A stretch of DNA of 64,000 bases from Deuterostichococcus epilithicus. Lineage: Eukaryota; Chlorophyta; Trebouxiophyceae; Prasiolales; Stichococcaceae. The translations under genes were made by a program, and so were the position numbers. The stretch's first letter is position 1. Every line of letters starts with the position of its first letter. The stretch spans positions 2,666,001 through 2,730,000 of the forward strand of contig JAVTLE010000013.1 in NCBI GenBank assembly GCA_033439295.1, written 5' to 3'. Positions 1-64,000 of the stretch are shown here, one piece after another. The notes beneath the pieces are model-generated. The model worked only from the letters and a program-made list of their open reading frames with translations. It ran no database searches and was not told where the DNA came from.

Positions 1-3000
1 TCCCCCGGGCTCGAAAACACGTAACCATCATCGTCATTGTGAAATGTGTTCATCGAGCAAAGCGACCCCCACCTCAATGCGCTGGCACTCCTTCTGCAAG
101 GCGGCCGGGTCGGGGGGCCCCCCCATCGCCGCCGGGTCCAGGTAGCCCCGCTTGACGGCGTCAAGGTCACGCTCCGCGGCGCGCACTGCGTCCCTCTTCG
201 TGCGCAGCTGCGCCGCCAGCCGCGCCATTTCCCGCTCGTACCTGGGGCAGTATTTAGGGTTTAGGGTGAGCCAACGCTTCAGCCTGCAAAGTCACCTGCT
301 GAGGAAGGTGGCTGGCAGATGGTCGTGTCCTCAGGAAGACGTTCGAGAGGAGGCTTCACACTGTAATGATGGCCAGTCAGTCAGTATCAATCGCAACAAG
401 AGGAAGCGGGTTTCGAGCAGCAGCTGCGCGGCAGCAACGACTGGGGCGCTGTCGCGCTGTTGAATCTGTCTGCTGTTGCAGCACTCGCACGGCTGAGCAG
501 TATCGAGTAGGCAGTGAGGTCCGCAGTGGCAACTGTGGCAGTGTTGGCTGGGGAACGCACGACTCGGAGGGCACATGGATGTCGTAGAGCGACAGGCTCC
601 AGAAGGTGGTGTACAGCTCCACAGAAATGGAGTCCCACACGGGCGCCGGCAGCAGCGCCCGCACGCTGGCCGCCAGCGCCGGCCACGCCTCGTGCCCTGC
701 GTCCGCCGCCGAGGGCACCTCCCCTGCAGTGCAAATGCCACAGGTTTTCTTGGCAGGGGACGGACGCTACAAGGTCTTCCATCGTCAGATTGGGTTCAGG
801 TATGCAATCAGGACACTTCACTGGGCTGTCAAGCCGAGGGCAGGATAGGGCATGGTAGGCGATGCCGCAGCGGCCGGGATGCTGCCAACCCCAAGGGCAG
901 CGGACTGCTTCTGGGTGCAACCCCTGTGCTGCAGCTGCCATGCGCCCGTCTCACCTGGCTCCTGCGTGGCTGGTGGCGCCACCGCGCCCTCGATCTCGCC
1001 CTCCTCCGCGGCCACCTCCCCCTCCTCCGGCTTGGTGTCCGCCGACTTGACAGCGGCGGGCGGCGCTGGTGCCGGCGGCGCCACTCCCGCAATGAGCGAC
1101 CGGTACAGGTGGAATGCAAACTCCTGCAGGGCGGGGCTTACGATACGTGGCGCAACAACCACCTTGCTGATGCCCTGCTGGCATCAGTCACCCACAGCGA
1201 CATAATCAAAAGCAAAGGAGCCAAGACCGGCCAGCGCCTTCCACTCCAACTACAACTACAAGCAGGCAGCCCGCTGGGTCAGTGCTCATCTGTGCAGCCC
1301 CTCGCTACGGCAGGAGCAGAAGTCGTTCTACATCCGACCAGCGGGCTGGCTCATGCTTGTTTTGGCCACAGCAGGCGCTGGCTGCCAGCTTGCGCTGTAT
1401 GCTGCGATGCAAGCGAACTCTGGCAGTGACAGGGCGGAGCACCCAGAAGGTAACAAACAGCAGCTTCAACACGGCAGACCAACGCAGGTGTCGAAAATGA
1501 CGCACCGGGTCGAAGCCGTAGTCCACGACCAGGGACTCCAGCGGCGGCAGCAGCCGCGCGTAGTCCCCCGGCAACATTGCCTTCTGCAGGAACTCGCCAA
1601 ACTGCGCGGCACCGACAACACACCCCGGTTGCTCTCGAGAACCTAGCCTTACAGCCGCAGAGATGCAGGTGTGTACGAAGGAGCGTACAAAGGCACCCAG
1701 TGCAGTGCGTGCGATCAAAACAAAGTCCAGTGGGCAGCCGGCAGGCAAACAGCACAGGACGACCGACCGAGGCACCAAGCAGACGGCAGGCTACCAACCC
1801 TACATCCATGCGGTGAAACCCTAGATCCTAACCCACCATGCCCTGGGAATGCTGCAAAAATTGAAAGTCACGCACCTGCAGCAGCGTCTGTTCCGCCTTG
1901 TCGTACAGCTCGGCGACCAGCTTGAGATGTGGCGACTCCGTCTGCAGCGCGATCAGCCGCAGCTGCTGTCCCAGCAGCACCAGCAGCGGCAGCGCCAGCT
2001 GCTGCTCCTCCGGCCCCTGCGCACGAGTTTCCTCTCAATGGAACAGAGACAGCGTTCGCGGGTGCATGTGTAGACCAATTGCAGGTCGTGGTGATGCGCT
2101 GTGCTGTCGTGCGCCGTGCTGTGGGCCGCCACCGGCGCCGCGCCGTGCATGTCGCGTCCGACAGAAGGCGGAAGGTGGAAGGGACACTGATGCTGCAATC
2201 CTGCGCCAGCAGCAAACTCGCTGCCGAAACGGCCGAACGGAGTCGTGAGCCTGGTGTGCTGTCGACACCTCCGTTTCACAAGCGCCGCACCTGCTGCAGC
2301 GCGGCCAGCAGGCGTGCGGCGCCCTTGGCCAGCTGCTTGCTGTTGCGCACGGCCCCAAAGGCCAGCGTCTGCGCCCTGAGCGCCTCACCGCCAGCCATGC
2401 CGTCCACCTGCTCCTGGCTGAGGTCCGTCACCGTCACCACACCCTGCACAAGCATGTCATCACTGGTTATGAGATCATCACGGTTTAATTCGAGAGTCCA
2501 GGGTTTTGCGGGTAGGAGAACCCTGCCCCGCCGCACGGTCCACCTGCTCCATGCTCAAGTTCGTCACCATCACTTCGCCCTGCGCACCGTCAAGGAGCGA
2601 TCGGCAGGGCGGCAGCATCATCAGGGGAGCTGGGCGGTCTGGCAACCCAAACTGGAACCTTGACGAGGCCAGCCCAACCTGCTCGACATCCTGGCCGCAT
2701 CAGATCAGAAGTCAGCACTGGAACCAAACCCTGTCAGGGGCTGCGACCCGTCAGTCAGGGCCACATGGGGAATGGCTCCTTGATGTTGTGCGCGCAAGAG
2801 GTGTTCGCTCCACCACGCAGCTCGCAATGCCTGAGTCCGCACCGCCATGGCCGCCACCAGCTGCGACTCCCTAAACCCTCAACCCTTCAGCCCGCACCGT
2901 CATAACGGCCACCAGCTCCTTGAGCACCAGCAGGTCGAAGGCCTGGCCGGCGCGCAGCTGGTTGACCAGGTACTGCGCCAGCGCTGCGATGTCCACGCCC

Positions 3001-6000
3001 GGGTGCTGCTTCGCGGCGTGCCCCGTGAAAGACGCCAGCGCCATCAGCCAGTCCGCGATGTTGACGCCGTCCTGCTTCAGCTTCTGGCGGCCTGCAGCGT
3101 GTTACAAAAAAAATGTATAGTTTGTTTACAACTGTACAACTGTACTTATTGACACGAAAATTTACAAGTACAGTTGTGTTTGTTGGGAGCAAAGGCATCC
3201 AATGGGTGAGGCGTGTAATGTGAGCCTGGGTAGGATGCTGCTGAGCTGCAGCTCGGGCGGTGATTCTGCTGGGCGCCCCGAGCACTGCGCTGCGTCTGCG
3301 CACCGGAGCCAGCGAGGCGGTCGATGATGACGAAGGTGAGGACGTCGAAGCCGAGCGGCGTGAGGTAGCGCAGCGCCTCAACGTACGGCTCCACCATGTT
3401 GGTGTACGCCTCCACCTGCGCGCGAACATGAGTGAACTCAAAAAGGATCTGTTCTATCGTTAATACACCTGTCTGTACCAACCATGTTGGTGTATCCCTC
3501 CACCTGCGCACACAAATGAATCCAAGTAATGAAGCGTGGAGGGTGTCACAAGTATGTAGACGAAATTTCGCTGTCAACACCCGCAAGTGGCTCCAACTGT
3601 GCGTCTACATTTCAGGGAATTCCCCGACTTTGTGTCCTTTGGTAGTGCGCTGACCAACGCCTGCAGGTTAAGAGTCGAGTTGGTGTGCTGCCAAGGCCTG
3701 TGCAGCACGGTGGAGCGTGCGGCGCACCGCTGCCGCCTAGCCACGCTGACAGTTGTTGCCAGAAACTGCGACAAGAGACTGGTCCATGTGCCAGCTGTGT
3801 TGGGCGCTGCTCACCTGCGCGATCATCGTCTCGGCGACTGCGAGCGGGTTTGCCGCCGCCACCTTGGCGAGCATGCGGCCAAAGGGCTTGAGCTTCTCCT
3901 TGTTGTCTTTCTTGTTCTGCGGCACGTGCACCCGCCGCAGCACCTTTTTGAGCTCCACAGACGCCAGCTTGGCGGCCGCCGCCAGCAGCGGCGTCGCCTT
4001 GGTCGCCTCCTGCCGCAGGGTCGAGCACAGCAGAACCCTCAGCTGGGTTGCGCTGCGTCAGTGCTGTTCACACTCGCGCAGCGGGCAGCATCGGGAAGCG
4101 GTCGTGGTGTCTGCTCCGGTGAGCAAAGGCATACGGTCCAGCGGTTCGAACTGCACATGAGCATCGTGCTGTCCATGTGGCGGCTCATGATGCCGTTCCG
4201 CTCTACACGGACCTGCGATCGACATCTGCTATCTTCAGCGCACTTCTGCACAGAGGGACATGGGCGCACCCGCAGCTGGGTGTACAGGCGGTAGCGGGTG
4301 GTGTAAGGCAGCGCCCCCAGGACGCCGTAGATCTCGGACGCGACCGCGGGCACCGCCGGCGTCAGCATCATGCCCGGCAGCAGCACGCTCGCCAGCACCT
4401 CCTCAACCTGCGCCAATGCCTGGTTCTATCAAATTTGAATTTTATATCGATGGAGCAGATCTAGTCACACAAGCGAGCTGGTTGACCATGTCGTGACACG
4501 GCGGGCCACAATCAGACAGCGGGAGGTTGGCACCGGCATCGGCACGACCTCTCGAGGCTCCTCAGTGGTTGCGCCACGTGAGCAGGAGCTGACTCGTCAA
4601 GCAGCTGCGGCGCGGCGGCAGTACCGACCACAGAAGCGACCGTTCAACGTGACCGCTGTGCAGGTGCCCCAGTTGCCCGCTAAAAAGCGCGCCTTGGCCA
4701 GCTCTGCGGCCGCAGCGGCGCGCCCAGCCTCAGGCGCGTCCGGGCCGGCTGCTGGAAGGTGGAAGTCCAGGACGAACCGCAGGCCGCGCGACAGCCGCGC
4801 CATGAGCCCCACGTCGCCGCTGATGTGCAGCCCCAGCGTCTGCAGCCGGCCCAGCAGCGCCGCATCCAGCACAGGGGGGGCCGCCGGCCTCGAGCCCTGT
4901 CCGGGGCAGCAGACCGCCTTCTTGTCTGGACAAATACTCGCACGCTTGGGATGGGGATGCAGCCGAGGGCAGGGTGCCGGATCGCGTACGGATATCAGCT
5001 GGTTTGTGCTGTGCCGATGTGCCGCAGGAAGACGGCCCACGGCGGGCTGCCAGGGGCGTGCCTGCAGGACTCCCGCCACCGAGGCTGGTGGGGCGAACCG
5101 GGTGGGCACGTGCTGGCACGCACCGCCTAACTCAGCACGGGTGAAGGAGGGGAAACCTGCCTTGGGATCGAGCGCGTAGCGCCCGGCCAGGCCCTGCGGG
5201 TAGGCGGCCGCCAGCAGCGGCGCGAGCAGCGCGTGCGCGTCGGCCNCCAGCGCCGCCGCGACCGGCGGGTGCGCCGCCGGCGCGACACCCAGCGCCGCCA
5301 GCCAGCCCGACAGCCTCTCCGCCTGCTCCCACTCGCCAGCCTGCCCGCGTAGGACGCAGAGTCACGACTGGACCGCACGTGCGGAGGCGCGGCACCGACA
5401 TGGGCACGTGTCACCAGCGGCGCTGCGAGGCCACGCCGGCAAGCGCAGGCCGCGGCGCTGCCACAAGGGGATAGCAGGGCTCGGGCAGCGCAGTGCACCG
5501 ACGGGTGGTGTGCGATGCACATTCTCGACACTTTTGTTCGGCAAGCCGCTGTCACCCGCATGAGCGCCGCCAGCAGGCCCAGCTTCTGGTTGCCAGCGGC
5601 CAGGGGGGCCCGCGCCGTCTCCGCCATGGGCCGCACGTCCAGCCGCAGCGTCGCGCTGGTGAGCACTGCAGGGCCGCGCGGCTGCCCCGCGGCGGCGTCC
5701 TGCTGCGCCTGCGCCGCCAGCACAGATTGTTGCTCCTTTGTGGGTGCACGCGGAGTCAGCGAGTGATCTGTCGGGAACAGGAACGCTGCCGGACCTGTGA
5801 GACCCTCCATCAGCACCACTGCAGCTGCGGCCTGCGGGCACCGGGTGCGCGGTGCCACGCGGTGTCCGGCCGGTCACATACTGTTGGGACCGGACCATGG
5901 CGACTGGTGAATGGCACCTCCCGCGGCCGGTCAATGTCTGCAGCTGGGAGCCATCTTGTGCTGCAGCTGAGAGCCATTGTGGATCCCAAAGTCTAGCTGG

Positions 6001-8343
6001 TGCTCGGGGTCCCAATGGCGCCGCACCGGCTCGGCTGCCGTCGACGCGAGGCTGATGACGCCGATGCCGCGGATCTCCTTCGCCAGCGCGGCCGCGGCGT
6101 CCTTTGCTGCCGCCGCCATCGCCTCGTCGCCCGGCGCCAGGTGCCCCATCACCGCCTCAAGGCTCACGATCCCCGCCTGCCCGGATTCACACTCTCTGCA
6201 GTTCACACCTTCATGCCAGGCTGTTGCGGCAGCAGCCTCACGCGTATGCAAGGTGTCCCAATGGCTCCAGACTCACTGTCTACGTGTAATCAGGGTCCAT
6301 TCCTGGCCCCAAATGGGAGCGCAGGCATGTGTCGCTCCTCGCTGGACTTTTTGCGGCTGCAGCATCAGCTGCACGACGGCAGGCCGACAGCAGGCCTGCA
6401 GGAGCGCCGAGCGCAGGACTGGACAACGATCGAGAGGCAGTCTGGCAGGACCGCGCCACAGGATGCTGCAGTCCGAGGCAGAGTGTCCACCTCCTCGCAC
6501 GGGCGCCCCTGCCGCACCTTCATGAGGGCCACCGCCACAGCGAAAAGGCTGTCCGGCGTCTCGCCGCCGCCCGCGGCGGCGTGCTGGAACAGGAAGCCCA
6601 GCATCTGCGCCACCGAATCGGGCACGAAGAGCCGGAAGAGGGCCACGTAGGCGCCGTTGCCGGGCTGCGCCGCAAAGGCCTGCAGCGCCAACGCGATGGC
6701 GCGGTTCGGGTCCAGGTCGAAGTACCCGATGAGCGCCTTCGTCTCCAGCACCTGTGCAGGAGGGTCAACACGTTATAGGGCCTGTCGACGGTTCGGAGCT
6801 TGAGAGAGCAGCGACCCTGGAGCTGGATGCGGTGTGGGTCAAGGTTAAGGTTACCCAATGAAAGAAAAACCCTGGAGGCAGACCTGCTGACAGCCTGTTT
6901 CGAACATTGACCCCTAGTGGACAGTCCCCAACCAGCACCAGCGATTTCAGATTCCCAGCACCTGTCTGCAGGAGGGGCACGCAGTCAGCTCCTCCTCATC
7001 GCAGCTCTCGAGCTCTAAAGATGCACAGCCTTATGCGCGAGCTGCAGCTGGTGTGCATTATATAAGATGCAGCCAGGCATGCATCAACCGCCTCAGAGGG
7101 AGGTCCAGCACATCGAAGCTGGTGTCACGCTGGCTGCACCTCCCGCAACCTCAGCAGGACACCAGAAAGACACGACGCACTCGCCATGCTGGCGGGCGGC
7201 AGCCTGGCGCTGCCAAAGCGGCCACGGCGCCGCCCAAAGAACCCCTTGCGTCCCCCGGCACTCCCTCTTCCCCCTCCCTTCCGCCCACTGACACATGCAA
7301 TCCGCACCAGGCCGGGCACGCTGGAGGGCGCCAGCGATGCGCCGCCGAAGCGATTGAGAGCGCCCAGCAGCTTCGCAAAGCCCTCGCCCTCCTCCCGCAG
7401 CAGGTTGAACTTCTGCTGCGTGTACACCGCCTTGGTGTTGACGCGGATGCCCTTGCGGTGCCACAGGGTGGCCGACACAACGACGCCGGCCGCCTCCAGG
7501 AAGTCGTCATCCGCCGTCTCCATCACCTCCCGCTTCGTGACCTGGAGGCATGTCACGCAACACAAATGGCGGTCGGGGTATGGACATGGGGAGAGACTGG
7601 GTCTGGAGGGATGCAGGAGCAGTCTCCATCATCTCCCGCTGGTGCTCTGTGGCGCCAGGCCACGAGTGACAGACGAGGGGCAGCTTGTCGATTGGACGAG
7701 CGTGACCTCGGCCTGAGCTTGCCTCCATCCTTCCGCCTCGCATGTCTCAAGCTGGGACAACCAGCGAATCTGAGTGCGACTTCGTGCAGCATGTACGAAA
7801 GGGCAAGCAGAATGGTGGCACGGGAGCTGCTGCAGCTGGCGCAGCTCCTGCACCAGCGCGTGACACTGCGACATCGACAAGCCAGCAGAGCGGGCCACTT
7901 ACGAGCTGCTGCTTGAGCAGCTCCTGCAGCAGCGCCACAAGGCGCTCCCGCGGGCCGTCCTTGCCGGCGGCAGGCGCGGCGGCCGGCGCCCCGCCGACCG
8001 CCGCCTGCAGCCAGCCCATCCACAGGACGTCCACCAGCGCGGGGCCGCAGCCCGAGGCCACCGGCCCTGCGCACCGCACGCCCACCACGAACTTGTCCGG
8101 CGCGAGCTCCCCCTGCAGCGGCACAGTGAACATGAGGATGCACACTCATAGTGCTCAACGTAAAAGAAGTGGCATTGCTCGTAATACGGGCAAGTTGGAT
8201 GTCTCAAAGGGAGGTTGAACCCTCGCGTCTCGACAGCAGCAGGTGCCCACCTGTGCGACCGCCTGGCATAGCTCGTACAGATACTGCTGCAGGGTGGCCG
8301 CGGTGACGCCTGTGATGGTCGGCCCCGAGTCGCTCGCCACGAG
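1..8343 (-). CDS. THO2: THO complex subunit 2 (THO2/THOC2), partial
   Basis: Largest subunit of the nuclear THO/TREX complex, which couples transcription to mRNA export. Eighteen exons join in phase (1005 codons): 8251-8343, 7903-8112, 7308-7541, 6518-6751, 6027-6176, 5556-5735, 5161-5340, 4693-4896, 4270-4407, 3815-4009, 3304-3415, 2898-3091, 2291-2443, 1876-2016, 1506-1601, 955-1123, 561-723, 73-241. Family signatures in order: LYELC, YTQQKFNLLREEGEGFAKLL, LIGYFDLDPNRA, YTTRYRLY, EAYTNMVEPYVEALRYLTPL, DGVNIADWL, QEQVDGMAGGEALRAQTLAF, and WDSISVELYTTFWSLSLYDI. This order matches plant THO2. The C-terminus lies beyond base 1. The first exon, with the start codon, was not found; it must lie above 8343, and an ATG-led open stretch at 9076 is a weak candidate. 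Two introns (after 5161 and after 4693) appear to use GC donors. One ambiguous base (n) sits in exon 5161-5340. Four intronic exon-edge echoes are listed separately. Confidence 0.93.
248..270. repeat. Interstitial telomere-like motif
   Basis: The plus strand contains about two units of the plant/green-algal telomere heptamer TTTAGGG, just outside the acceptor of THO2 exon 73-241. Shorter CCCTAAA-type fragments occur at about 2871, 30365, 40003, 53366, 55764 and 60219, mostly near exon borders. Confidence 0.6.
2527..2579 (-). repeat. Echo of a THO2 exon start
   Basis: On the minus strand this intronic stretch has an AG acceptor followed by codons reading GEVMVTNLSMEQVD, a diverged copy of the start of exon 2291-2443, which reads GVVTVTDLSQEQVD. 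The copy lies about 136 bases upstream of the real exon start. It soon loses similarity and is not needed for the reading frame. Confidence 0.8.
2834..2870 (-). repeat. Echo of a THO2 exon end with donor
   Basis: The minus strand reads SQLVAAMA followed by a GTGCGG donor. It copies the end of exon 2898-3091, which reads KELVAVMT followed by GTGCGG. The copy lies in the following intron, about 56 bases further on. The donor hexamer is retained exactly. Confidence 0.8.
3479..3510 (-). repeat. Echo of a THO2 exon start
   Basis: The minus strand shows an acceptor CGCAG followed by VEGYTNMV, matching the start of exon 3304-3415 (CGCAG then VEAYTNMV). It lies in the preceding intron, 88 bases upstream of the real acceptor. 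Confidence 0.85.
7617..7650 (-). repeat. Echo of a THO2 exon start
   Basis: The minus strand reads HQREMMETAPAS, resembling TKREVMETADDD at the start of exon 7308-7541. It lies about 100 bases upstream of that exon's acceptor, inside the preceding intron. Similarity covers about 30 bases. Confidence 0.65.
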
Positions 8344-10417: not shown

Positions 10418-10691
10418 CGGCCAGGCTGGGCCTCCTAGAAGACCGCAGACCACTACCTGCAGATGCGCCACATCCGACCAACTCTGTGATAGCAATTTTG
10501 CACAGAACGGCAGAGTGATCGTACGCCTGCAAATGCCGATGTTGGCGAAGAAAGCACCCGCGGCTTTTGCCGCTGCTCCTGGGCGGGCAGCTGTAGGGTT
10601 TTCATACATTCAAACCGGTGATCGACATGCACGAGTTTCACGTCAGCTTGCAACATTCGTCCGGCCACTGCACGCTGCAGAGACCTGCCAA

Positions 10692-18535: not shown

Positions 18536-18562
18536 CTTGCCTGGTGTCGCTACAAAGTGGCG

Positions 18563-19318: not shown

Positions 19319-21635
19319 TCAATCAGCCTTTGCCTTCGCGTCTCGCCACCTCAGCAGCGGCGCGCTGAGCTGCTTGCCCGTCTTAAACAGCAGGAAGAAG
19401 AGGATGTTTGATGCCGCCGCCACCGCCAGGAAACCCTGCATGGCAGTGCAAACAGGTCCGACATCCACATGCACGAGAGAAAAGGCTCGCAGCCACGTCT
19501 GTCAAGCGAAGACGATACACGTTGCCAAATTGTCGCAAAGCCGCGCCTGTGGCCAGGGCATCTTGTTGAGAAAGGGGTATGGGAACACGCCGTTGAAGTG
19601 GCTGCACACCACGATCCACACCTGCGCAGCAGCGTGGGTTTCAAAATGACATCGCATTGGCACTGGCTTGCCTTCGGCAGCCTCCATCCGCGTCATTGTT
19701 CATCGCGGGCAATCTGCAAGATCACATTGTTTCAGCAGCAAACTCTCGCCGAAGCATCTCCGTGGTTTCGTCCTCACCAGGTAAAAGCTGGCGATGCACA
19801 GGCAGATTCGGGACGAGCGCTTGCTAAACGTCCGCGGGTGTCCCATCTGCGCGACGCAGGACGCATGCGGTCAGGGAGCAATTGGGTCAAAAGCGCCGAG
19901 CTGGAGGGCAAGTGCGATGCTGTCAGGAAGAAGGGCGGATGCTTCTGCGACCACAGCACTCGTACGGATCGCACGCAATGCGCCACGGATTTGCGTGGCC
20001 GTAGTGCCAAGCTGCAGCTGAACCCCGCAGTCACGAGCTGGAGCTGGACAGAGCCAGGTGTGGCGCAGGAGCCGCACCGCAAGGTCGCTCCAGGCGACGA
20101 CGCTGTTGAAGACATGCACCGCCGGACCCAGCCACGGCGGCCGCACGATGCCCTTGCCCTCCACATCCCCCTGTGCCCGGATGATAATGCGGCTGTCAGG
20201 CGGGCCGCGGGCGGCAGAAGCGGTGCGCTGTCCATCTGCCCTGATCTGCTGGCAGCTATGACCCGAGTGCCGTGCGAGCCGCCCCAGGCCCAAGACGCAG
20301 TCTGCCCAGGGCTGGGACGCAGTCTGCGGCCCAAGAGCTGTGCTGGCCGTCCACGGAGACACAGGGTGGACTGCCCACCCCTCGGCTTCCCTCTGGTTCG
20401 GAGATCCGAAAACATGGGGCCCCCACGCTACGAGGGCGGCCATTCAGAGGAACTGCTGCTTGCAGTGCCTTCAGGGGTTCACGGTTTTGGGTCGCAGGGC
20501 CTTCACCAAGCCTGCGACTCGTGTCCCTCCCTCAGTATTGCATGTGTGGAGCGCCCGACACGCGCCTTCGTGCGAGGTGTTCACTGTCTTGTTCACACAC
20601 ACCCTAGTGCGGCACAATGGCTGTCGCCAAATGTCTGCGATGCGCTCCCACACACACCCTAGTGCGGCGCAATGACTGTCGCCAAACGTCTGCAACGCGC
20701 CCAACACGCGCACCTTGGTGGAGGTGTCCACGATGTAGTACATGATGGTGACCACGTTGGCGAGCGCAAAGATGGCGCACGACAGGTCGTCCGCCAGCGC
20801 GTCCAGGCCGCCCTTCCACGGGTTGTCCTGCGGTCACAACGCTGCAATCACAGCAGCGCTCCCCCCATAGTCCCTGTGATGTCCGCGCTGCGCTTCTGCG
20901 GGCTGTGCTGCGGTAACATGACCGCAGCCTCATGCAGCGCCAGATGCCAGCGGGCAGAGGTCACGGGCCATGTCGATGGCTTCCGGCAGCAGCTGTCCGC
21001 CCAGGCGCTGCTGCGGGCGATCCTGGCGCAGGCACGCTGCTGTGCGGGCTGGCTGGCGCCACGGCGGGGAGAGTTAGGGCGCTGATGCGCGAGCAAGCTG
21101 GCGGCGCCCAGCCCCCTTTCAGGACGCCAGTCGCCCTGTTTGGTGTTTCGCAACAGCATCTGGACCACAGTGGCCACCATGCTGCAGCCGTTCCGGCATC
21201 CCTCAGACACGACATGCTGTTGTGACTCACCACACTGGTGACGTCCGCCAGCGCTGAAAGCCCCAGCGTGACTGCTTGCAGGCTGAAGGAGTAGAAGGTC
21301 AGGTACCGGAAGAACCAGCCGAAGCCTGAGGAGCCCGGGTGCGCCGCCGCCTGCGGCGTTAGGTGCCACCCCCAAACCTGTGGGTTGTGCACGTGAAAGG
21401 TGTGCAGGGACAGACAGCCGCACGAGCGTGAGATTTTCGCGAGCATGTGTGAGCATGTCAGCAAGCTGATTCCGTGAGGAGATATGGCACAAGTTTATGC
21501 TGCTCGGGTGCCGCTGGCAAGGAGCAAACAACAGGCATCGCGATTCACCTTTGCATAGATCATGAACGCCAGGGCATGGAACGCAAAGGCGGCATCCGCA
21601 CTGGACAGTGCCCTGCATGGGTCACACTTGCCCAT
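19319..21635 (-). CDS. AIG1/FAR-17a family membrane hydrolase
   Basis: Complete seven-exon model (21549-21635, 21231-21377, 20714-20827, 20078-20170, 19778-19846, 19547-19621, 19319-19435), every junction in phase 0, 233 residues, close to animal AIG1. Animal AIG1 and ADTRP are multi-pass membrane threonine hydrolases of fatty-acid esters of hydroxy fatty acids. Matching segments: FGWFFRYLTFYSFSLQAVTL (holds the catalytic Thr), LANVVTIMYYIV, RPPWLGPAVHVFNSVVAWSD (holds the catalytic His), RTFSKRSSRICLCIASFYL, VVCSHFNGVFPYPFLNKMPW, and LAVAAASNILFFLLFKTGKQ. At least five hydrophobic segments are visible. The intron after 19547 uses a GC donor (CAG then GCGCGG), needed to give PWPQ-GFLAV. The start ATG at 21635 gives a short MGKCDPC N-terminus. 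Confidence 0.9.
20551..20703 (-). repeat. Echo array of an AIG1-like exon end
   Basis: Downstream (minus sense) of exon 20714-20827 the intron holds diverged copies of the exon/intron border. The real border reads VDTSTK then GTGCGCGTGTTGGGCGCG; the copy at about 20551-20585 reads VNTSHE then GGCGCGTGTCGGGCGC. Between them a tandem repeat of about 56 bases (about 20592-20647 and 20648-20703) carries the motif CACACACCCTAGTGCGGC. Confidence 0.75.
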
Positions 21636-39400: not shown

Positions 39401-42400
39401 CTTCTGAGATCTTGCTGTCGTAAGTCGCAGCGGGTACCCGCCCATCACGGAGCTGCCACCGCCGCTGGGCCTGGACACCCTGGGGCCTGCGGAGTTCCGA
39501 GCCATTGGCGCCCTGCGCGGTCTGCGGCGTCTGAGCCTGGACGTCAGCCTGCGCTCCTCCGCTCTGGCCGTCGCTGCCGTGCAAGCGCTGGGCGCCCTGA
39601 CCCTGCTCCAGGTGCGGCTGTTGTTCCTGCCGAAGATCCAAGCTGACATTTGCATGTCTGAGCTGAAACCGGATTGAGACACCAAGAGATGGGCTGGTAC
39701 GGTTCTGCCCGCAAGTGCATGCGTGGCTCACAACCTGGTGTGCAACCGGCTGTGCAGAGGTATCTGCCCATGCATTGGGACGCATTGCGGTCTCACCCCT
39801 CTGTACCAGCTTCGCAATGATTGCTGTTCTCTGTGATGTTGAGTGTTGAAGTAATGCACAACGTCTCCACCAAGAGTGCTTGCACAGTCGCTGCTTATCC
39901 ACGTGCAAACCGCCGCACCGTCCTTGGGGAGCCATGAAGCTCCGTCATGAGGGCTACCACCGCCGCAGCTGCCGCGTTTTCTTGCTTCCGCGGGGTCGCG
40001 GTAAACCCTAAACTCACCAAAAAATTTGAACCTAGTGCAGGAGCTGTATGTGGAGGCCACGGTGCTGGCGCGCGACTACTCCCGCGTCAAGCTGCCCTTC
40101 CCGGACGCGGTGCTGGGCCTGACCCGCCTCCGCGCGCTGTCCCTGCAGATCCCCTGCACGGTGCGCAGCGTGCCAGGCTTGGTACATATCGGATCCAGCT
40201 TGCTCAGAGCCATTTGGCGGCTGTCTCTGTGGCTCTCGGCAGCATTGCCTGCCGACATGATGACACTGATGCAGGCGCACATCAGTTCCGGAGTGCAGCT
40301 GTATACAACCTGGACGCGGTGCGACTCAGAACCTGTGCTTTCCTTTATCTGCCAGGCATTGTCAGGCTGGCCAAATCGGACCTCGCCTGAAGGCACTGTA
40401 TTCTTGGCTACATCCTTGCGCTTGCAGCGCATCAAATGCGGTGCAACAGCTTGTCATATGCAAAGCTCAGAACTGTTGATGTATTGCCCACTGTATCACG
40501 AGCAGCCAGAGTACCATGCCGCCCGGCATGGAGCTCCATGCCCGGCGGCATGGTGCTGCTGGCATCTCATGCTGGAGCTGGCGTGCTCCATCGTCGTTGC
40601 GGCCCCCATGGGCAGGCTCCATGCCAAATGGCACTGTCATGCCGACACATCTCAGCTGCGTTCGTGGCCAGTGTGCTCATGAGCGAACCTACTGCAGGCC
40701 CTTTACCGCATCGGCTGCGACGATACCCGCTAGCGGGCTGCAGGGCGGACGACATCCTCCCTGTGCTGCAAAATGCTCATGGTGTCCTGCATCCACTTAC
40801 TGGCACGCCTTCGCTGCAGGCGGGCTCCATGCCGGACGGCATCGTCAAGCTGACCAAGCTGTCGTCGCTGGACCTCAACACGCCGTTTGCGCCCAAGCGC
40901 GCCCTGCCCCCCGGCTTCGGCGGCCTGCCGCTGGCGCGCCTGACGCTGTGGGGCGGCCACCTCAGCGGCGACAAGGCCGTCGACGAGCTCGCTGGGCTGA
41001 CCGACCTGGAGGTGACGCACAGCTCAGAAATGTCCTGCGAACCGTTTTGCAGAGACTGCTGTTTCAAGAAGCAGACATCTTCGGCGCCAGGCTGCAAGCA
41101 CGCGCGGCTGTGTCCGCGCCTCTTGACACAAGGACAGGGGCATTGCGCTTTCGTCCGGCGGCCTCTGGCTGTCCTTGCAGCCATGTCACGTACATCGGAA
41201 TCGGCATCGAACCTGACGCAACCCTGCGTGCTGCATGAGCTCACAAAGACTTTTGCAGAGCCAGGGCAAAATTCCCCTCTATCTAGCAGCTCGAGCTGCT
41301 CCCCAACTCAAATTTATGACTTTTGACTCTATTGACATCGTTCACATAAAATGAGCGCCTGCAGATCCTGAGTTTGGGCAACTGCGGGCTGGCGGAGTTC
41401 CCGACCGCCATCCAGGGCCTCTCCAAGCTGCAGTATGTCGACCTGGGTGAGCCGTCCTCGCCTGCTGCTGAATCTGACTGCTGCACACTGTTCCCACACT
41501 TGCTGTCCATCCCAGCCTCGCTCCCAGCCTGCATGACGACCTGCTGCTCATGTGGAGCACGCGTCTGCTGGCCACGTTGAAAGAAATCTGGTGATGTCTG
41601 CGAAGCCTGCAAAGTCCCGAGAAAGGGCTAGTAGGGGCTGTGCGCACAGCCGCTTCTGTACATTGTAAAGGCGCAGAGCACCACCAACGATGTTCTGAAT
41701 GCAGGTCACAACTATGCCATGGGCGCCTCACTGGTGGCGCAGCCGGCGACGCTGCTGACGCGCCTCACTCAGCTGGCCACGCTGCAGATCCGCCGCTCCG
41801 GCCACTTCCAGGAGGTGACGCTCTCGGCCTGGCTTGCCTTGACTTGCCCGGCCGTGGTGCCAAACTTCAGCGCCACAGGCCTCTTTGCAGGTGGCGAGAA
41901 CTTTCGCCACTGGCAAAGACGCCCAGTACTGCTGAAGTTCGCGAGCACTCGCAACCTTCTCTGAAAGCAACCATCTCACGCGACAGCACCTCTAAGGCCT
42001 GCATTCACCCTTTCGGCCGATGCTTCTGACCGACTGTCATGACCTGACGCCCGCAGGAGCCCGTGTGCATCGCAGCGATGCCGCTGCTGCGCGGCAGCAC
42101 CGGCTGCCCGCTGCCGGCCGAGTTTGCGGTCGAGGACATGGCCGCTGCCGAGGAGGAGATCGCGGCCGCCATCGCCGCCGCCAGCGTCCAGGCCGCCGCC
42201 GACGGTGCGGACTGTGCTACGAACTGTGAGTGGCCTGCGAGACCGCACCACTCGGGTGCCATGGCCCCAACAGGATCGCCGCGCCTTGTTTGCAGCACCC
42301 TCGTTTCCGGTGTTTCTGTGCATGAGTGCTTTGCGACCAGTCGGTGCCGAGGTGTGCAGGTGCGGCGGGCCAGCAGGCGGGCGGTGCAGGCGCAGCGCCG

Positions 42401-44170: not shown

Positions 44171-47100
44171 TCACTCTGGTGTCCTGGCGGGTGGTGGCCT
44201 GGTAGTGTCCTCGTGGATGGTGTAGCTGCTGATCCGCGTCTCGATTTTGGACTTGCTGTCGTGCATCTCCGCGCAGTCGTGCGTGATTGTTGCGCACAGA
44301 CTCTCTGCACAGAACAAAGGCACACTTGCTGTAGACACCAGAGCCGTGCAGCGAGCCGGTTGCAAGTGTGCAGGCGCAGCCGTCAGGCGCCATGAGCAGT
44401 ATGCAGTGCGCCGTGCGGTCTTCTGAATCTGCTGCGCCACGTAAGCAGCAGTGCGAAAACACTGCTGCCTCACAAAGGAGTGTCGGATCAAGCAAGTTGA
44501 CGGTTCGCACCCAGAGGCATGATGGCGAACTGCAGCGAACGAGAACACACACGCAAGTCAGCCACGGCGTTCGACACATCTCTGCGCACTGCAAGCCTGG
44601 AGGAGCACTCTGAGCCCCCGTCACAGGTTCTGTTCTCTCGAACGCCCGCACTGCAAGGACGTTTCAGAGACGGGGCGCGGGAAAGGCGCGCAGCTGGTTC
44701 CTCGATGTTGACCCCGATTTCCTCGATGCCCAGCAGCAGGAAGGCGATGGCGACGCTGGCAGGCAACGTGGCCCACCCCGCGGCGTGCCACAGCGTGAAG
44801 GGCATAAAGGTCAGCCAGATGACCAGGAAGCGGGAGGTGTGCCTGCGCGTGCGAGGGGGCGTGTGACCCGCGCGGCAGTGGCCCACAGAAGACGGAGCAG
44901 CGCACAGGCATGCAGCTGACTCTGCAACGCAGCACGGCTCGCCTGCCGTGGGTGCACCGCTTCTGGGCACTGCCATGCGCCGGAACATGCCGGAACGTGC
45001 CGACCATGCCGAACGAGTCCCGAGGTGGAGGCGGGAGGTGCAGCCACCAGTCTGTGCACCAATGGAAGCAGGCAGCAGCAGGGGGCAACACACGGATGAC
45101 AGCTTCACCTGGTGTAGACCAAGGGGATGGGCTGGTTGATGATGCGCTCGCAGGTGCCCAGTGCGTCCGCGAGGTACGACACATTGTCGTCCATACGCAC
45201 GTTTGCAGCCTGTGGGACCTTCGCCGCCTGCGGAAGGGAGAACAAGGGTTTGACAGTATCCCGGGCGTCACTGTTCTGGAGCAGCTGGCCCATATTGCAG
45301 AGATCGTGTAGGTAAATAGGATCGCGATGTCATACTTCCAGGTTCACCGCAGGGCTCATCCAGCGACCAGCCAGCACTTCCGGGAGTCTGGCACCGCGCG
45401 CCTCGGTGACACCTTGCCGCAATGCCGCGAGCCCGGTTGGCCATGCGGCGTCATGTCACCTTCCGAGCCACAGCTTCCACCCCTGTTGCTCTGTGTGCCG
45501 AGCCGCACCTGGATGGCGTGCGCCAGCACTGCCAGCACGTAATTGGGGCGGTGTTCCGCCTCCAACATCTCCGCCAGCTCAGCCTCCAACAGGATGCCCT
45601 GCAGCGAAAAGGCTGTGGGCGTCAGGGCGAAAGTGCAAGCCATTCGTTGCCGCCTGCCGGCAGCTGCAGCGCGCGGCACGCAGCGGCACACCGTGACGCT
45701 GGTCTTCTCCGCGATGCACTGCGCGCAGGCATGCGCAGGCACACGCTGTGTCGGCGGCCCCCGGCCCGTGGAGTGCAGCAAGATCCCCGGGCCTTGATCT
45801 CGAACACCCATGGACCTGCTCTCTTGTGATTGGTTGTATTGTACTAGTTGTTTTGTCTTGGCTCTTGTCGGCTCTCTCGAGTCGTAGTTCGTCTTCGGAA
45901 GGGACCTTCAGGGCCTCGGCCAGGTTGCCGTGTCCTCCCATTAAATGGTTCTTCTGAACAGTGGTCAATGTGTGGAAAGTGACCTTCAGGTCGTCGGCCA
46001 GGTTGTGGTCCTCCCGCAGGTGCGCCTGCAGCGTGTGGCTGTAGGCGACAGTCCACCGCCGCATCGCCGCCAGCAGCTCGCCCTGCTGCGGCGGCAGGCT
46101 CGCCTCCGCCTGCGCCCGGGGGGTTTCAAGCCGTCTGCTTTGCTGTCGGCGCCGTCCGGGAACGTGATGCAGGAGATGCCTCAGGATCCTTGGGGACAGC
46201 TGGGCAGTCTCCAGGATTGGGGCCTCTACAGCCTCGAACGGTGCGCATCTGGCCAAGTGCAGGCACTAAGACTCATGATGGAGGCTCCAGCCACGACAAG
46301 GAGCATGCGCGGTTCTGCGCAGCTGCGCCTGCACAGTGGAGCAGGCGAGTGAGGGGTGTGCCGCAGCACCGCAGGCGCTTGAAGGCACAGCTCATGCACA
46401 GGGTTTAGCAGGCAAGCCCCTGCCTGGCGGACGAGGTTGCGAGACTTGTTGACGACGCCGCCCCACGTCTTGCGGGCCTCATCCCAGCGTGCGTAGCTCT
46501 CGTTGGTGCGGAACACCTGCCCGCCGGACAGCAGGCGGCATTCAGACGAGGTGCGGCACAGCTCCCGTGGCATGAGGCCAGGATCACAGGCTTTGCATGG
46601 CACAGCAGGAGCATCTGCCGCAGGGCCCTGTGCAGCAGCGCATACGGCGGGCGAGGGCAATGAAGCTTCCCCATTGGCTGCCTGCAAACTGTCGCGCGCC
46701 GTACGCATCGGCGGGCGCACCAGGAGCAGCGACAAAGCAAAGGTGCTGAGGTTGAACGGCTCGGTGTCGGCGATGCTGATCGAGCGGAACGCTGCCGGCA
46801 GCAGCCCCATCTCCTGTACGGTCTCGTACACGCACACCGTCGCCGCCAGGGCGCCCACCAGCCGCAGCGGCAGGGCCAGCCCGCGCACGATGCGCGACCT
46901 GTGGGGCAGTTTAGGGGTCGGGTCGCGTCTGGCGGGCAGAAACAAAGGGGGTTTGCGGTGCCGCTGTAGGGCGAGCTCCCGAGCAGCCAGGGCCGTGCAC
47001 GGCGCAGGGCTCCAGAACTGGCACGGCGGGCAGACCTTCGCATCTTCTTGCTCCGCCTGCACCCTGATGGGCAGCCCAGCTCAGGAGACGAAGCCTCGTT

Positions 47101-51925: not shown

Positions 51926-52189
51926 TGCAACGGGTCTTGTAACTGTGCGCAAGCTCGCCGGTGGTGCAGCAACTCTGTCGGACACAACCCCTGACACCTC
52001 CAAGCTTGGGAACCTGCCCTGAGGTCGAAAGTATACTGGTCCACTATATCAGTGGTCTGTTGCTTATCGGAGACTCTATGGGCTTTTTCAAAATAAAATG
52101 TTGCAAACGACAGGTTGCTGTTGGCGGAAGCAGCGTCCAAATGGGTTTTGGCATTGCACCTGCATATCGGCTCGGCTATTTGTCGCAGC

Positions 52190-52290
52190 TCCTGCCGGCA
52201 GGCAAAGCAGTGCAATTGGTGCCCGTCCAGCTGCGATGCCAGGCGCGCGGGAAGTAGAACAGCGGGTAGCTCGCATTGCACCGGTCGCAC
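52190..52290 (-). pseudogene. Frameshifted zinc-ribbon repeat
   Basis: The minus strand reads KACDRCNASYPLFYFPRAWH in one frame, then the second half of the same repeat (QLDGHQLHCFACRQELRQ) in another frame. No splice sites separate them. A one- or two-base indel is the simplest reading, either decay or a sequence error. Confidence 0.6.
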
Positions 52291-59041: not shown

Positions 59042-62000
59042 ATGGCACATTGCGCGCACGGCTCTGCTGGCTCGCAGATCCATGCACCGACGGGCATCAC
59101 CCACGCGGTGGCGGGCGCCTTCACGAGGCCTGCGGCGGCAGACGGCACGCAGCCGGACCTAGTGGTCGCACGCTCCACCCGCCTGGAGCTGTGGCACCCA
59201 AGGTGAGCGCATTCCATCTGCATGTGTGATGCATAATCCGTTCCGGTCGACAGAGCATCCTGTCGCTTCGGCCAGGCGAGGTGCATGCACCCCCCGAACA
59301 CCATGCGGGCATGAAGACGCGGCAAAGTGGCGCGCCAGCAAGGTCAACCCTGCACAATCCTGCACACGCAGCATCGGCGTCTGCATACGCAAGCGTCAGA
59401 ATCGTGGGTGCAGGCCATACGGCGACGGCGGCGTGCGCCTGGAGGCGGGCACTGTCGAGCGCCTGTGGGGCGTCGTGGAATCGCTGGCGGTGCTGCGCAG
59501 CCGGCAGGAGGGCCGCGGGCGCGACGCCCTGGTGCTCACCTTCAGGTGCGCTTCAGCATTGCTTGAAAACTTCCTACTTCGGGAGAAAGACGAGTGATTC
59601 TGATGAGCCAATCAGCAGGCAGTGTCGCTCCTGCGTGACGCGAAAGTAGACTCGACATCGATCTGCCCCTGGGAGCACGACATTTGCCCGCAATCGGGGC
59701 AGCCGGGGTCGGCCTACACAATGCAGCCACAAAGTCTTGGGCGTACGCACAGCAGCACGTCCTGTCAAGCCCACAACTGCAGGCGGCACCGAGCCCAAGC
59801 GACCCCGCACCCCAGGCCACTGTGCACGCTGCCAGTCCCGCATGCTGCATCAGACCTGCAGGCAGGATTGACCTCAGCAGGCGAAGGCTTGCGTACCCCG
59901 TGCCACCTTGTGTTGCGCTCGAACAGCATGCCAATGTGCCTGCTACCGTCCAGGCATCTCCAAGCATAACTTGCGAGCTTTCGGTTCATATGGATCAGTC
60001 CGTACATGTGCTGCGGCGTCTGTGTTGCAGCTCATCACACCGTCGCATGCGCAGTCGAAGGTGAAGGCGAATCCAAGCAGAAGTGCAGCAGTCTTACATT
60101 GTCCGCTCTTTTAACACCTGAATCATGCAGGGACGCCAGGCTGGCGGTGCTGGATTATGACAGCGGCGCGAACTAGTCCTGGCACATCCTAGATCAAAGT
60201 CTTCCGCGCTTTCAACACCTAAACCCTGCACTCCTTACGGCAACGTCAAGCTGGCGGTGGCAGAGTCAGACTACTTCACAAAGACAATGACTATGTGTTG
60301 CTGGCTTCAGAGACGCCAAGCTGGCGGTGCTGGAGTGGGATGATGCGGCGGACCGGTTCCGCACCAGCAGCCTGCACTTCTTTGAGGGCGACGCCGCGCT
60401 GCGCGGCGGGCGGCGCGCTTTTGCGCGTGGACCCAAGGCCGTCTGCGACCCGCAGGCGAGTCTGCCTTGCGGCGGCAGCATTGCTGCATGCATGACCTGT
60501 CCTCAGAGAGAGCCAGAGGGGTAAGAGTACACTCGCAGATGAAATCTATAGAGGGTAACGAGGAGTGCATACAGGGTGACCAGAGATACCTTGTCGATAT
60601 ATCAAGAGACCAAGCACCGGTTGGATTTGCGGCTGGGCGGCGCACAGGGTGCCTGCGGCTGCCGTTGCACAACTTCCTGCTGTCGGCGAGCAGCTGTGCG
60701 ATCAATGTGCTGCAGCAGTGCTCGCCGCGCCGCGCAGCAGACACTGAACTCTCAATCTCGCCGCAGGGCCGCTGCGCGGCGGTACTATTCTACGGGCATC
60801 AGCTGGCGGTGCTGCCGGCGGTGGGCTCCGACACGCCTGAGCTCGGCGACGAGCTGGATGGCGGTGGGGGTGCTGGACCCGACAGCGGCAGCAGCGGCGG
60901 CGCCGCAGCCGGGGTTGCCACCAGCTACATCGTTGACTTGTCAGCGCAGGGCATCCGCGAGGTGCGGCACCAGCAGCTGTGTCATGCGCAGCTGCTTGTG
61001 TGCAGCGAAGGAAGGGCAGGCCGTTCTGCCGCAAGCAGTGCTTTGCTGCGTGGATACACATGAATGCCCGCAGATGGCGGCAGACAGGCATGCATCATGT
61101 GCACAGCTCGGTCGAAGCCTCAATGCTACGGCCAGCAGCATGGGTCGTCCTCCCGGCTGGCACGTGATGACATCCAGCTGTTCAGCCATTTGTGATGCAG
61201 TGATATGGCGGCAAGCCATATCTGCGCAAACCATTACACATGAAACATGTCCAGTGCAACCTGCAACGCTTTCACAGAATGGCCGGGCCATACAGCTCAC
61301 CACCGCTCCGAGATGCAGAGCATGCGCTGAGCCAGTCGGTGGCTCATTCCCGAGCAGCAGGTGTCGCACCAGAGCTCGTAAGCCAATGCAGCATCTCGTC
61401 AGATTGTTTACTTTTGTTTCTTTATAGTGCGCATGAGCATTGCATTGCATTTTCTGCAGGTGCGGGACCTGGTGTTCCTGCACCGGTACAACGAGCCGAC
61501 ACTGCTGCTCCTACACGAGGTGCACAACTCGCCTCCAGACACCATCCTGACGCAGCAGCGTGCCGCCGCTGCTTTTGGTCGTCCCGGTCTGCCACACCCA
61601 GCAACATTAGCGCCCTGTCCTGAGGGACATGCCTGTCCAGCAAGGTCGCTGTCACCTTGCCGAGTTTTCGCGAAGCTGGTACATTGCCTATCGCCCAGTG
61701 ACCAAATGCTTTTCACTTTGTATGCCGGGTTTAAAGGAGCAATCCGGATGTCACTGGGCTGCCCCCCCGCGCAGGGAGGCCAGCCGACGTGGGCGGGGCT
61801 GCTCGCCGAGCGGCGAGACACCTGCGCGCTCGCGGCGCTGTCGCTGGACGTCGCAGGGCGGCGGCAGCCGCGCATCTGGGGCGCCGCAGGGCTGCCCGCT
61901 GACGCGCACGGCCTGGCGGCGGTGCCCGGCGGCGGCGCGCTGGTGCTGGCGCACAACCTGCTGCTGTACCACACCCAGGTGTGTCTTTGGCACACATCCT

Positions 62001-64000
62001 GCTGCTGTACCACACCCACTCTTGTTATCATCGTCATCATGCATCTTGATTCTCGATGCGAACTGCTAGGACTGCGCTGGCTGCGAACAGCAGTGGCGCA
62101 ACCCTGCTGTTGTACCACACTCAGGTGCGTGGGGTGCAGTTAGGGCCTCCCAGTTTCCCACAGGTGGACAGGTAGGAGGTAGGTTGTGCCGGTCCTGGCG
62201 CACAGATTGTTGATGTAATTGATGCGGGTGCGCCCCAGGCGTGGCTCCAGCGCCTGATTGCGACTTGCTGCTGCATGGGCTGTTGTGTTGTTGTTCTGCT
62301 CGTGGATTTAGCTCCTGCAGAGTTCGCCTGAGCACTGTGCATCGCTGCAGCCTGCTGAGCAGAATGACATTGGCTGCACCGTGCCTGAGTCATTTGCTTG
62401 ATGCTGGCAGGCGCGCTTGCAATGCTTGGTTTTGGTGTTTGGCACGTTGACAGCGGGCTTGTGTGAAATAGAGAGCTTGACGCATGCATTGTTGACACAG
62501 ATGTTCCAGTGCTTGGAATGGCAATGCAAAGGTCAGGCCTCCATTTCAAGCAGGCTCAAAGCCCATTGGCGCGTCTCAGTTCACAACCATGTGCACATTG
62601 GCACTCGAACCCACTGACAGCATCCGCTCAAGAAAACTTGAGCTCGACGGTCCTACAGGGCTCATCCTGCGCGCTGGCAGTCAATGGCCACGCGGCGGCG
62701 GGCGTCGCGCCGCCGGCGGTCGAAATGAATGAGATGGTGGAGCCGCCGGCCGCCACGGCAGCGCGCCACGCAGCCCGCTACTTTGACAACGTGCACCCGG
62801 TGAGCACCACATGTCTCGCGCATGCTTGTCACTGGCATTTTATAAACAGCGCTGATGGAGCTGCTGGCGGCCACCGCAGCATGCCGAGCCGTGATGCCCG
62901 CTGACAATGTGCAACCTGTAAGATGCATGACCCAGCTAGCTCGACGCCTCACAGATAGCGCTAGCGCACGGTCCGCACTGCCTGCCGCCGCTGGGGATGT
63001 CTCCAGACGTCCCATGTGCATGGTTCAAGTCATCAGCTGCGCAGCCCGGACATGCCAATGCAGGCGTCTGCTGGGCCATGACCATGAGCCTGCTGAACGC
63101 CGTCAAACAAAACTTGACGTCCCACAAACAGGCAGCAGCGCCCGCAGCCGCAAAGAACGCGCCGCGTGCCGAGGGCGTGGACGTCGAACTGGACGCCTGT
63201 CGCGTCGGCTGGCTGGACGCGCGCACGGCGGTGATAGGCGCCAAGTCGGGGCAGCTTCTGGCGGCGACGCTGGTGGCCGAGGGCGGCAGCATGCGCCGCA
63301 TCCAGGTGCCTTTTCTTGTCGTGCCCTTGTGATGTCGTGGCCCTGATTGGCTGGGTTGAGGAACAAGACCCAGCACACTGCACATGGGCAACACGCACAC
63401 ACCATGCCAATGTGCAGTCGGTGCAGCGCTCGGCTGGCTGCAAATGCTTGACCCCGAGGCGGCATGCAACAGCGTGTTTGATGTTCTCTTTGAGGCACTT
63501 GTGACAGTCTCTGGCGCCTCCTGACCAATTCGACTGCGGCAGGAGCCATGCGTGCAGTGTGCTCGTGCATCATCAGCAAACTCATATGAATCGTCATGTC
63601 ATATTCGTGTTACAATTCGAACCTCGCAGCTGTCTAAGGCGAGCGTGGGGTCGCCAGTGTCAGCGCTGGCGTCCCTGGGAGCGGGCAACTTGTTCCTGGC
63701 ATCCTGGGTCGCAGACTCTCTGCTGGTCTCCGCCGTCAAGCAGCAGCCGAAGGTGCAGCGCTTCACCGGCAAGATGCTGCTCGAAATTGCAGTACTGCAG
63801 GCAGTGGCAGCAGCAGCCCTGGCAGCAGCTGTTAGCTTATATTGCTGAGGCTTCGCGCTAGACTTATTTGCTGCCGCTTCTCCCAACGAGGTATTGCTCT
63901 TTCTGAATGCAAAACCTAGCGAGGGTGCATACCTGCCTTCAATGGCCCCTTGCAAAACCGTCTCATCTCCTTGCGGGGCACTGCAAACGAGTACCGCTGG
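59042..64000 (+). CDS. CPSF160: Cleavage and polyadenylation specificity factor 160 kDa subunit (CPSF160/CFT1), 5' part
   Basis: Scaffold of the mRNA 3'-processing complex, built of beta-propellers. Exons: 59042-59202, 59414-59545, 60311-60455, 60767-60961, 61460-61519, 61775-61978, 62659-62799, 63132-63305, 63630-63752, all in phase; the gene continues past 64000. Matching blocks in order: HAPTGITH, PDLVVARSTRLELW, GRDALVLTFR-DAKLAVLEWD, SSLHFFEG, DPQ-GRCAAVLFYGHQLAVLP, TSYIVDLS, VRDLVFLHRYNEPTLLLLHE, PTWAGLLAERRDTCALAALS, VLAHNLLLYHTQ, GSSCALAVNGHA, VELDACRVGWLDARTAVIGA KSGQLL, LSKASVGSPVSALASLGAGN, and LASWVADSLLV. The ATG at 59042 is plausible, but an acceptor at 59082 would allow an upstream first exon. 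The intron after 60455 has a GC donor (CAG then GCGAGT). The last block has SWVAD where the family has SRLGD. Confidence 0.93.
60085..60275 (+). repeat. Two tandem echoes of a CPSF160 exon start
   Basis: The intron before exon 60311-60455 holds two diverged copies of its acceptor region and start. Copy 1 has GCAG then RDARLAVLDYDSGAN (about 60130-60170); copy 2 reads NVKLAVAESDY (about 60240-60270). The real exon reads RDAKLAVLEWDDA. Upstream flanks also match (AGTCTT...CGCT.TT.AACACCT at about 60089 and 60200), so the unit is about 110 bases long and was tandemly duplicated. Confidence 0.88.
61990..62130 (+). repeat. Two echoes of a CPSF160 exon end
   Basis: After exon 61775-61978 (ending NLLLYHTQ then GTGTGT) the intron contains ILLLYHTH at about 61996-62022 without a donor, and TLLLYHTQ followed by a GTGCGT donor at about 62099-62130. 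The second copy's donor fits the local consensus better than the real one. Confidence 0.88.
63753..64000 (+). other. CPSF160 intron at the window edge
   Basis: After the GTGCAG donor at 63753 the frame could also read on to a stop at 63848, giving a hydrophobic Ala-rich tail. Since the family continues for about 1000 more residues, an intron is preferred. Confidence 0.5.

What the first reader, a model, noticed from the sequence alone, without database searches (positions are those of the whole stretch)
2527..62130. Splice-junction 'echoes': diverged partial copies of exon edges sit in adjacent introns of many genes
At least 12 exon borders in 8 unrelated genes (THO2 x4, DUF177, AIG1-like, membrane protein, hydrolase, F-box/LRR, bestrophin, CPSF160 x2) have one to three diverged copies of 25-60 bases of the exon edge in the neighbouring intron, mostly 55-140 bases away. 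Acceptor-side copies lie upstream and donor-side copies lie downstream, and many keep the AG or GTGCGN site. Seen in sequence at nucleotide and codon level. I infer recurrent small tandem duplications spanning splice sites, with selection keeping one copy. This resembles the known idea that tandem duplication of AG/GT-bearing exon segments can create or slide introns, but its density here looks unusual. Functional roles such as decoy sites or alternative exon ends are possible.
Basis: partly seen in the sequence, partly recalled or inferred. Interest (0 to 1): 0.88.

Follow-up and report, generated by a model that had tools for sequence, protein, structure and literature searches.

The report
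Exon-edge copies stranded in neighbouring introns
In this green-alga genome many of the longer introns carry a decayed copy of the edge of the exon next door, about 100 bases away; the copies look like neutral scars of small DNA duplications across splice junctions, and they give a readable record of how introns grow longer.

Summary
With a self-trained gene finder on 264 kb (window plus 200 kb of another contig), 51 of 1,059 exon edges match their adjacent intron at z>4, against 4 of 566 far-edge controls. They lie in 47 of 603 introns and 21 of 38 predicted gene units. Copies are almost only direct: 43 edges at z>5 against 2 inverted. Homology mostly reaches the splice junction. Copies start 80-140 nt apart in 34 of 51; 37 of 173 introns of 300 nt or more carry one. 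Echoes drift: substitutions fall 105/96/118 on codon positions, and two THO2 echoes are absent from six orthologues. Plain contiguous tandem duplication explains only part: the intron side is repeated in 8 of 40 cases where 21-25 were expected, and very young echoes are few. Best reading: junction-spanning direct duplications from error-prone local repair, filtered by splicing and kept visible by exon conservation. No evidence of function; no transcripts were available. Whether the density is unusual could not be tested.

The parts
2527..2586 (-). THO2 acceptor-side echo of exon edge 2391-2450; called as mini-exon 2544-2579 by the gene finder
   Evidence: 75% over 60 nt; mini-exon; peptide absent from six THO2 orthologues
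3481..3519 (-). THO2 acceptor-side echo of exon edge 3393-3431; called as mini-exon 3483-3503
   Evidence: 85% over 39 nt; peptide absent from six THO2 orthologues
6829..6861 (-). THO2 acceptor-side echo of exon edge 6701-6732
   Evidence: z 4.3
7185..7220 (-). THO2 donor-side echo of exon edge 7317-7352, in the same intron as the previous one
   Evidence: z 5.8
7619..7640 (-). THO2 acceptor-side echo of exon edge 7513-7534
   Evidence: z 5.4
7829..7859 (-). THO2 donor-side echo of exon edge 7905-7935, in the same intron as the previous one
   Evidence: z 6.8; 87% over 31 nt
20881..20918 (-). Borderline: AIG1-like gene, partner of 20801-20838 at 80 nt
   Evidence: 76% over 38 nt, score 15.5; AIG1 family hit
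27014..27047 (-).
   Evidence: z 7.5; 81% over 42 nt
29569..29608 (-). Hydrolase gene, donor-side echo of exon edge 29667-29704
   Evidence: z 11.4; alpha/beta hydrolase hit
30550..30582 (-). Hydrolase gene, acceptor-side echo of exon edge 30462-30495; the intron side is repeated too (contiguous duplication)
   Evidence: z 6.0; tail z 5.8; unmatched spacer 0
40611..40646 (+). Borderline: LRR gene, partner of 40819-40854
   Evidence: 78% over 36 nt; score 16
45906..45939 (-). Bestrophin gene, donor-side echo of exon edge 45984-46015
   Evidence: z 7.1; bestrophin hit
60132..60168 (+). CPSF160-like gene, acceptor-side echo of exon edge 60312-60350; a further weaker copy at 60243-60266
   Evidence: z 8.2; 60243-60266, a second echo only z 3.6
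61988..62018 (+). CPSF160-like gene, donor-side echo of exon edge 61947-61977, start-to-start distance 41 nt
   Evidence: z 8.3; 94% over 31 nt; RSE1/DDB1/CPSF1 propeller hit
62094..62124 (+). Second donor-side copy of the same edge, followed by GTGCGT
   Evidence: read; 61998-62018 matches 105 nt on; second echo z 6.0
62858..62916 (+). CPSF160-like gene, donor-side echo of exon edge 62740-62798
   Evidence: z 5.7

Best explanation
The echoes are relics of small, local, same-orientation DNA duplications whose copied piece reached an exon-intron junction. The copy joined to the exon body stays in the mRNA and is conserved; the other copy is stranded roughly 80-140 nt inside the intron, is spliced out and drifts. 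Shown: that the copies are real, direct, anchored at the junction, spaced about 107 nt, drifting without codon constraint, and found mostly in longer introns. Inferred: that they arose by error-prone repair of staggered breaks or by slippage, sometimes with filler between the copies; that splicing decides which events survive, because a copy wholly inside an exon would break the frame; that exon conservation keeps survivors visible longer than intron-intron copies; and that the rate was higher in the past.
For: Edges against controls; direct 43 versus inverted 2 at z>5; 21 of 26 whole-exon hits end within 9 nt of the edge and none starts 40 nt or more away, no control hit; spacing against uniform placement, KS p 4e-14; codon positions 105/96/118 and in-frame stops in 3 of 24 ungapped echoes; 0 of 148 introns of 120-200 nt but 37 of 173 of 300 nt or more; some clearly contiguous cases; acceptor-side intron flank weakly similar as a pool, mean z 0.94, n 20.
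Against: Intron-side homology in 8 of 40 where contiguous duplication predicts 21-25; among 12 cases with estimated identity 0.83 or more, 2 have a strong repeated tail; few young echoes, 3 of 44 at 0.90 or more, where a constant rate gives many. Filler and staggered breaks were not observed directly: no relative shows the empty site. Part of the length association is built in, since the insert itself lengthens the intron and short introns cannot hold one.
Confidence: 0.55

Rival explanations
1. Only ordinary contiguous tandem duplications at a constant rate; those across junctions merely outlast the others because the exon copy is conserved.
For: Five young contiguous intron-intron tandem repeats exist; contiguous junction-spanning cases exist; among repeats of 90% or more, intron-intron and exon-intron pairs are equally common, 6 and 6, while at 82-90% they are 1 and 8.
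Against: Tail homology too rare (8 of 40 versus 21-25); about 4 old junction-spanning echoes expected from the young ones, a rough figure resting on five events, against about 40 seen; periods of the young repeats are 32-77 nt, echoes mostly 80-140.
Confidence: 0.18
2. Insertion of a mobile intron-like element (introner) with a long duplicated target: the spacer is the element and the echo the target copy.
For: The spacer is usually unrelated to the sequence beyond the echo; the second CPSF160 copy is followed by a canonical GTGCGT.
Against: Spacers share no sequence with each other beyond control introns (39 spacers); by my reading, spacers do not run from GT to AG; two 801-nt regions match only themselves.
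Confidence: 0.07
3. The echoes work as alternative exons, alternative splice sites or decoys, and are kept for it.
For: Several echoes keep good splice-site scores; two THO2 echoes are open in frame and called as mini-exons; the C1 phosphatase-like echo differs mostly at third positions, 2/1/6.
Against: Codon positions 105/96/118 and stops in 3 of 24; spacing modulo 3 is 13/21/17; THO2 echo peptides absent from six orthologues; median donor score -3.2 at echoes against 5.2 at current sites, acceptors 1.3 against 4.9.
Confidence: 0.06

Closest known systems
Tandem genomic duplication model of intron gain (AGGT duplication; passages of PMC3443670 and PMC2891723)
   Same: Local duplication of exon sequence that ends up inside an intron, protein unchanged.
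   Different: There a new intron arises between two copies of AGGT within an exon. Here an existing intron carries the copy, in mid-intron, next to the edge it copies.
Staggered double-strand-break repair in Daphnia neointrons (passages of PMC4202315)
   Same: Direct repeats of terminal exon bases within introns, attributed to staggered breaks; said to add intron length.
   Different: Those exon repeats are 4-12 bp at the opposite end of new introns; here they are mostly 25-60 nt and about 100 nt from the edge copied, in long introns.
Repair-mediated duplications in vertebrates (abstract, passages and breakpoint section of PMC2671141)
   Same: Nearby copies including exon parts and splice sites, left in introns, not tandem.
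   Different: That set requires copies more than 50 bp apart and includes an opposite-orientation exon copy; here inverted copies are nearly absent.
Small tandem duplications by end joining of staggered breaks (passages of PMC8355091)
   Same: Direct, under 100 bp, made at break ends by fill-in synthesis.
   Different: Contiguous duplications in mouse cells; most echoes here lack a repeated spacer.

Membership tests
Contiguous tandem duplication across a splice junction | Same orientation | tested here: met
   43 direct against 2 inverted edges at z>5
Contiguous tandem duplication across a splice junction | Whole unit repeated, including the intron part | tested here: inconclusive
   8 of 40 cases, 21-25 expected; 6 of 44 with spacer of 10 nt or less; weak pooled signal on the acceptor side
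AGGT tandem-duplication intron gain | Downstream-exon echo at the intron's 5' end and upstream-exon echo at its 3' end | tested here: not met
   Echoes lie near the edge they copy, median 107 nt
Introner insertion | Inserted sequences related to each other | tested here: not met
   39 spacers, all against all, no better than control introns; very diverged families could be missed
Staggered-break repair (Daphnia type) | Short exon-end repeat at the opposite end of a new intron | tested here: not met
   Repeats mostly 25-60 nt and in mid-intron; mechanism as such not excluded
Staggered-break repair (Daphnia type) | Empty site in a relative | not testable with these tools
   No related algal DNA was available
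Duplicated alternative exons | Coding constraint on the copy | tested here: not met
   105/96/118 substitutions by codon position; stops in 3 of 24; one possible exception (2/1/6)
Duplicated alternative exons | Use in transcripts | not testable with these tools
   No RNA-seq available

The most novel reading that the evidence does not exclude
A distinct process, different from background tandem duplication, copied exon edges bounded by splice junctions, always in the same orientation, into the flanking intron about 100 nt away. It ran as a burst in this lineage's past and supplied much of the length of its long introns.
Probability: 0.22. Interest if true: 0.8.

Novelty: new variant of a known kind. 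Interest (0 to 1): 0.5.

Why it matters
How introns grow after they are born is thinly documented. Here one genome carries many scars of growth, each with its own built-in reference (the conserved exon edge), so sizes, ages and rates of intron-lengthening events could be measured directly. It also shows one source of spare splice sites near exons.

Tried and rejected
mRNA or cDNA origin: sequence beyond the echo does not continue into the partner exon in 41 of 43 tests; the other two are one intron that holds both a donor-side and an acceptor-side echo. Capture in either orientation: inverted copies nearly absent. Introner family: spacers unrelated. Dispersed repeat: two 801-nt regions match only themselves. 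Alternative coding exons: neutral pattern, spacing not in frame, THO2 orthologues lack the inserts. Assembly or haplotype artefact: the middle 80% of cases are 13-26% diverged, which I take to exclude it. The first edge test dropped introns without enough length-matched controls (463 and 460 edges kept) and was replaced. One search was a faulty alignment of a stretch with itself and was discarded. Searches were script errors. The identity profile exaggerates the drop at the junction, because it is anchored on the echo and ungapped; I rest instead.

Literature: nine searches (open-licence library; one search returned nothing). In the titles and abstract openings listed I saw no report of this pattern in an alga. 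The Chlorella NC64A genome paper, which I recalled as worth checking, is not held, so absence from print is not established. Seen: PMC2671141 abstract, passages and one section; PMC4202315, PMC8355091, PMC3443670 and PMC2891723 passages only; all others as listings.
Full report
Setting. The window is G000:C11:2666001-2730000 of a 46.8 Mb assembly in 21 contigs, 59-67% G+C by 4-kb block. A polyprenyl synthase predicted in the C1 sample (hand-edited before the search) matches green algae best: an MMETSP transcriptome entry at 82%, then, among named records, Coccomyxa viridis, Symbiochloris and Elliptochloris at 71-72% (best 120 of 7,820 listed).

Gene models. No annotation or transcripts were available, so I wrote a two-strand hidden-Markov gene finder and trained it on the window plus 200 kb of contig C1. 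It converged on 38 gene units and 625 introns, donor consensus CAG|GTG(C/A)G, acceptor GCAG|G, median exon 113.5 nt, median intron 223 nt. Some units merge neighbouring genes: the 26829-33819 unit has both an RRM and a hydrolase hit. That hardly matters for intron edges. Models are predictions; at least one GC donor was probably missed.

Is it real? Each exon edge (up to 60 nt) was aligned to its own intron and scored against 300 same-length slices of other genes' introns. Donor side 23 of 526 and acceptor side 28 of 533 exceed z 4; far edges of long exons against the same intron give 2 of 285 and 2 of 281. At the smallest p (1/301) the counts are 25 and 27, where about 2 each are expected, and 3 and 3 for the far edges. 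The 51 edges lie in 47 of 603 introns (9 of 133 in the window) and in 21 of 38 gene units. A scan without gene models gives 69 local direct repeats against 2 in one shuffled version and 10 inverted pairs. The pattern is real, present in both sampled regions, and not special to the window.

The window list. Thirteen strong edges lie in five genes: THO2 six, the 26829 membrane-protein gene one, hydrolase two, bestrophin one, CPSF160-like three. F-box/LRR and AIG1-like pairs are borderline. The DUF177 region gives z 2.5.

Anatomy. (1) Orientation: inverted edge matches at z>5 are 2 of 1,059 against 43 direct. (2) Junction anchoring: tiling whole exons (up to 400 nt from the edge) finds 26 hits and none in the control; 13 end within 1 nt of the exon edge, 21 within 9 nt, 5 at 10-39 nt, none further, although 856 edges have 80 nt of exon or more. 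(3) Spacing: copies start a median 107 nt apart; 34 of 51 lie at 80-140 nt against about 10 under uniform placement. (4) Intron length: echoes in 2 of 80 introns of 49-120 nt, 0 of 148 of 120-200, 8 of 202 of 200-300, 15 of 83 of 300-400, 16 of 61 of 400-600, 6 of 29 longer. Introns of the 44 cases at z>4.5 have median 389 nt, others 217. Part of this is built in. (5) A second echo is found in 6 of 44 cases.

Fate. Echo and exon differ at 105, 96 and 118 sites of about 600 each at codon positions 1, 2 and 3; transitions 162, transversions 157; 3 of 24 ungapped echoes have an in-frame stop. Spacing modulo 3 is 13/21/17. Echo G+C (0.67) lies between exon edges (0.69) and introns (0.59). Two THO2 echoes read as in-frame mini-exons by the gene finder (2544-2579, 3483-3503) are absent from all six orthologues aligned. 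One echo in a C1 phosphatase-like gene differs mainly at third positions (2/1/6) and may be an exception. On the whole the echoes drift.

Mechanism. If the events were contiguous tandem duplications, the intron part of the unit should be repeated too, diverging about twice as fast. Clear cases exist (C1 sample 155823 and 25121, window 30502), and the acceptor side shows a weak pooled signal (mean z 0.94, n 20; donor side 0.65, n 13, median 0.04). But 8 of 40 cases are significant where age-matched simulations predict 21-25, and of 12 cases with estimated identity of 0.83 or more only 2 have a strong repeated tail. In the C1 polyprenyl synthase gene a 60-nt, 92% echo stops at 'CAGGCA' with nothing similar beyond. 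I take that point as a missed GC donor, because the predicted protein carries seven extra residues just there; no alignment was made to prove it. Young echoes are few: 3 of 44 at 0.90 or more, while simulated constant-rate duplications have a 75th percentile of 0.95-0.97 against 0.85 observed. Background intron tandem repeats are young and shorter (five; periods 32-77 nt; 90-98%); from them I estimate about 4 old junction-spanning echoes (rough), near the number that look contiguous and far below the total. So I see two layers: ordinary tandem duplication, and a larger, older class of junction-anchored copies with a spacer that is not repeated. Staggered-break fill-in with filler, or faster loss of intron-side similarity, could each explain the second; I cannot separate them without a relative.

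What it is not. No exon-exon continuation. No shared spacer sequence. No dispersed copies of the two regions tried.

Relation to known work. Tandem duplication and staggered-break repair are proposed routes of intron gain and early lengthening (passages of PMC3443670, PMC2891723, PMC4202315). Local repair duplications in vertebrates include exon parts and splice sites (PMC2671141, abstract, passages, one section). What differs here is the scale (about 8% of tested introns, 21% of those of 300 nt or more), the length of the exon-edge repeats, their place in mid-intron and the junction anchoring. Nine searches showed me no such report in algae, but the library is partial and one paper I wanted was not held.

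Verdict. Observation confirmed, with the gene count trimmed; interpretation partly supported; a new variant of a known kind, of moderate interest, and of more if a relative shows exon-bounded copying.

Noticed in passing
20594-20700: A young contiguous tandem repeat inside an intron (55-nt period, 90% over 52 nt), an example of the background duplication process.
   Followed up: partly
L012:3734-4021: One 288-nt intron holds both a donor-side and an acceptor-side echo about 41 nt apart, as if a short ancestral intron with both exon edges were nested inside it.
   Followed up: partly
L017:6869-6934: Echo in a phosphatase-like gene whose differences from the exon are mostly at third codon positions (2/1/6): possibly a constrained or recently active copy.
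   Followed up: no
61947-62124: Three copies of the same 31-nt CPSF160 exon end; the outermost copy is followed by a canonical GTGCGT, the current donor is GTGTGT.
   Followed up: partly
L018:589-648: A 60-nt, 92% echo in a polyprenyl synthase gene beside a probable GC-AG intron missed by the gene finder.
   Followed up: partly
32799-33100: Low-complexity repeat region in a glycine-rich RRM protein, unrelated to the echoes.
   Followed up: no
42483-42725: A 105-nt repeat with copies 123 nt apart, 86% identical, in the coding part of the LRR gene unit.
   Followed up: no
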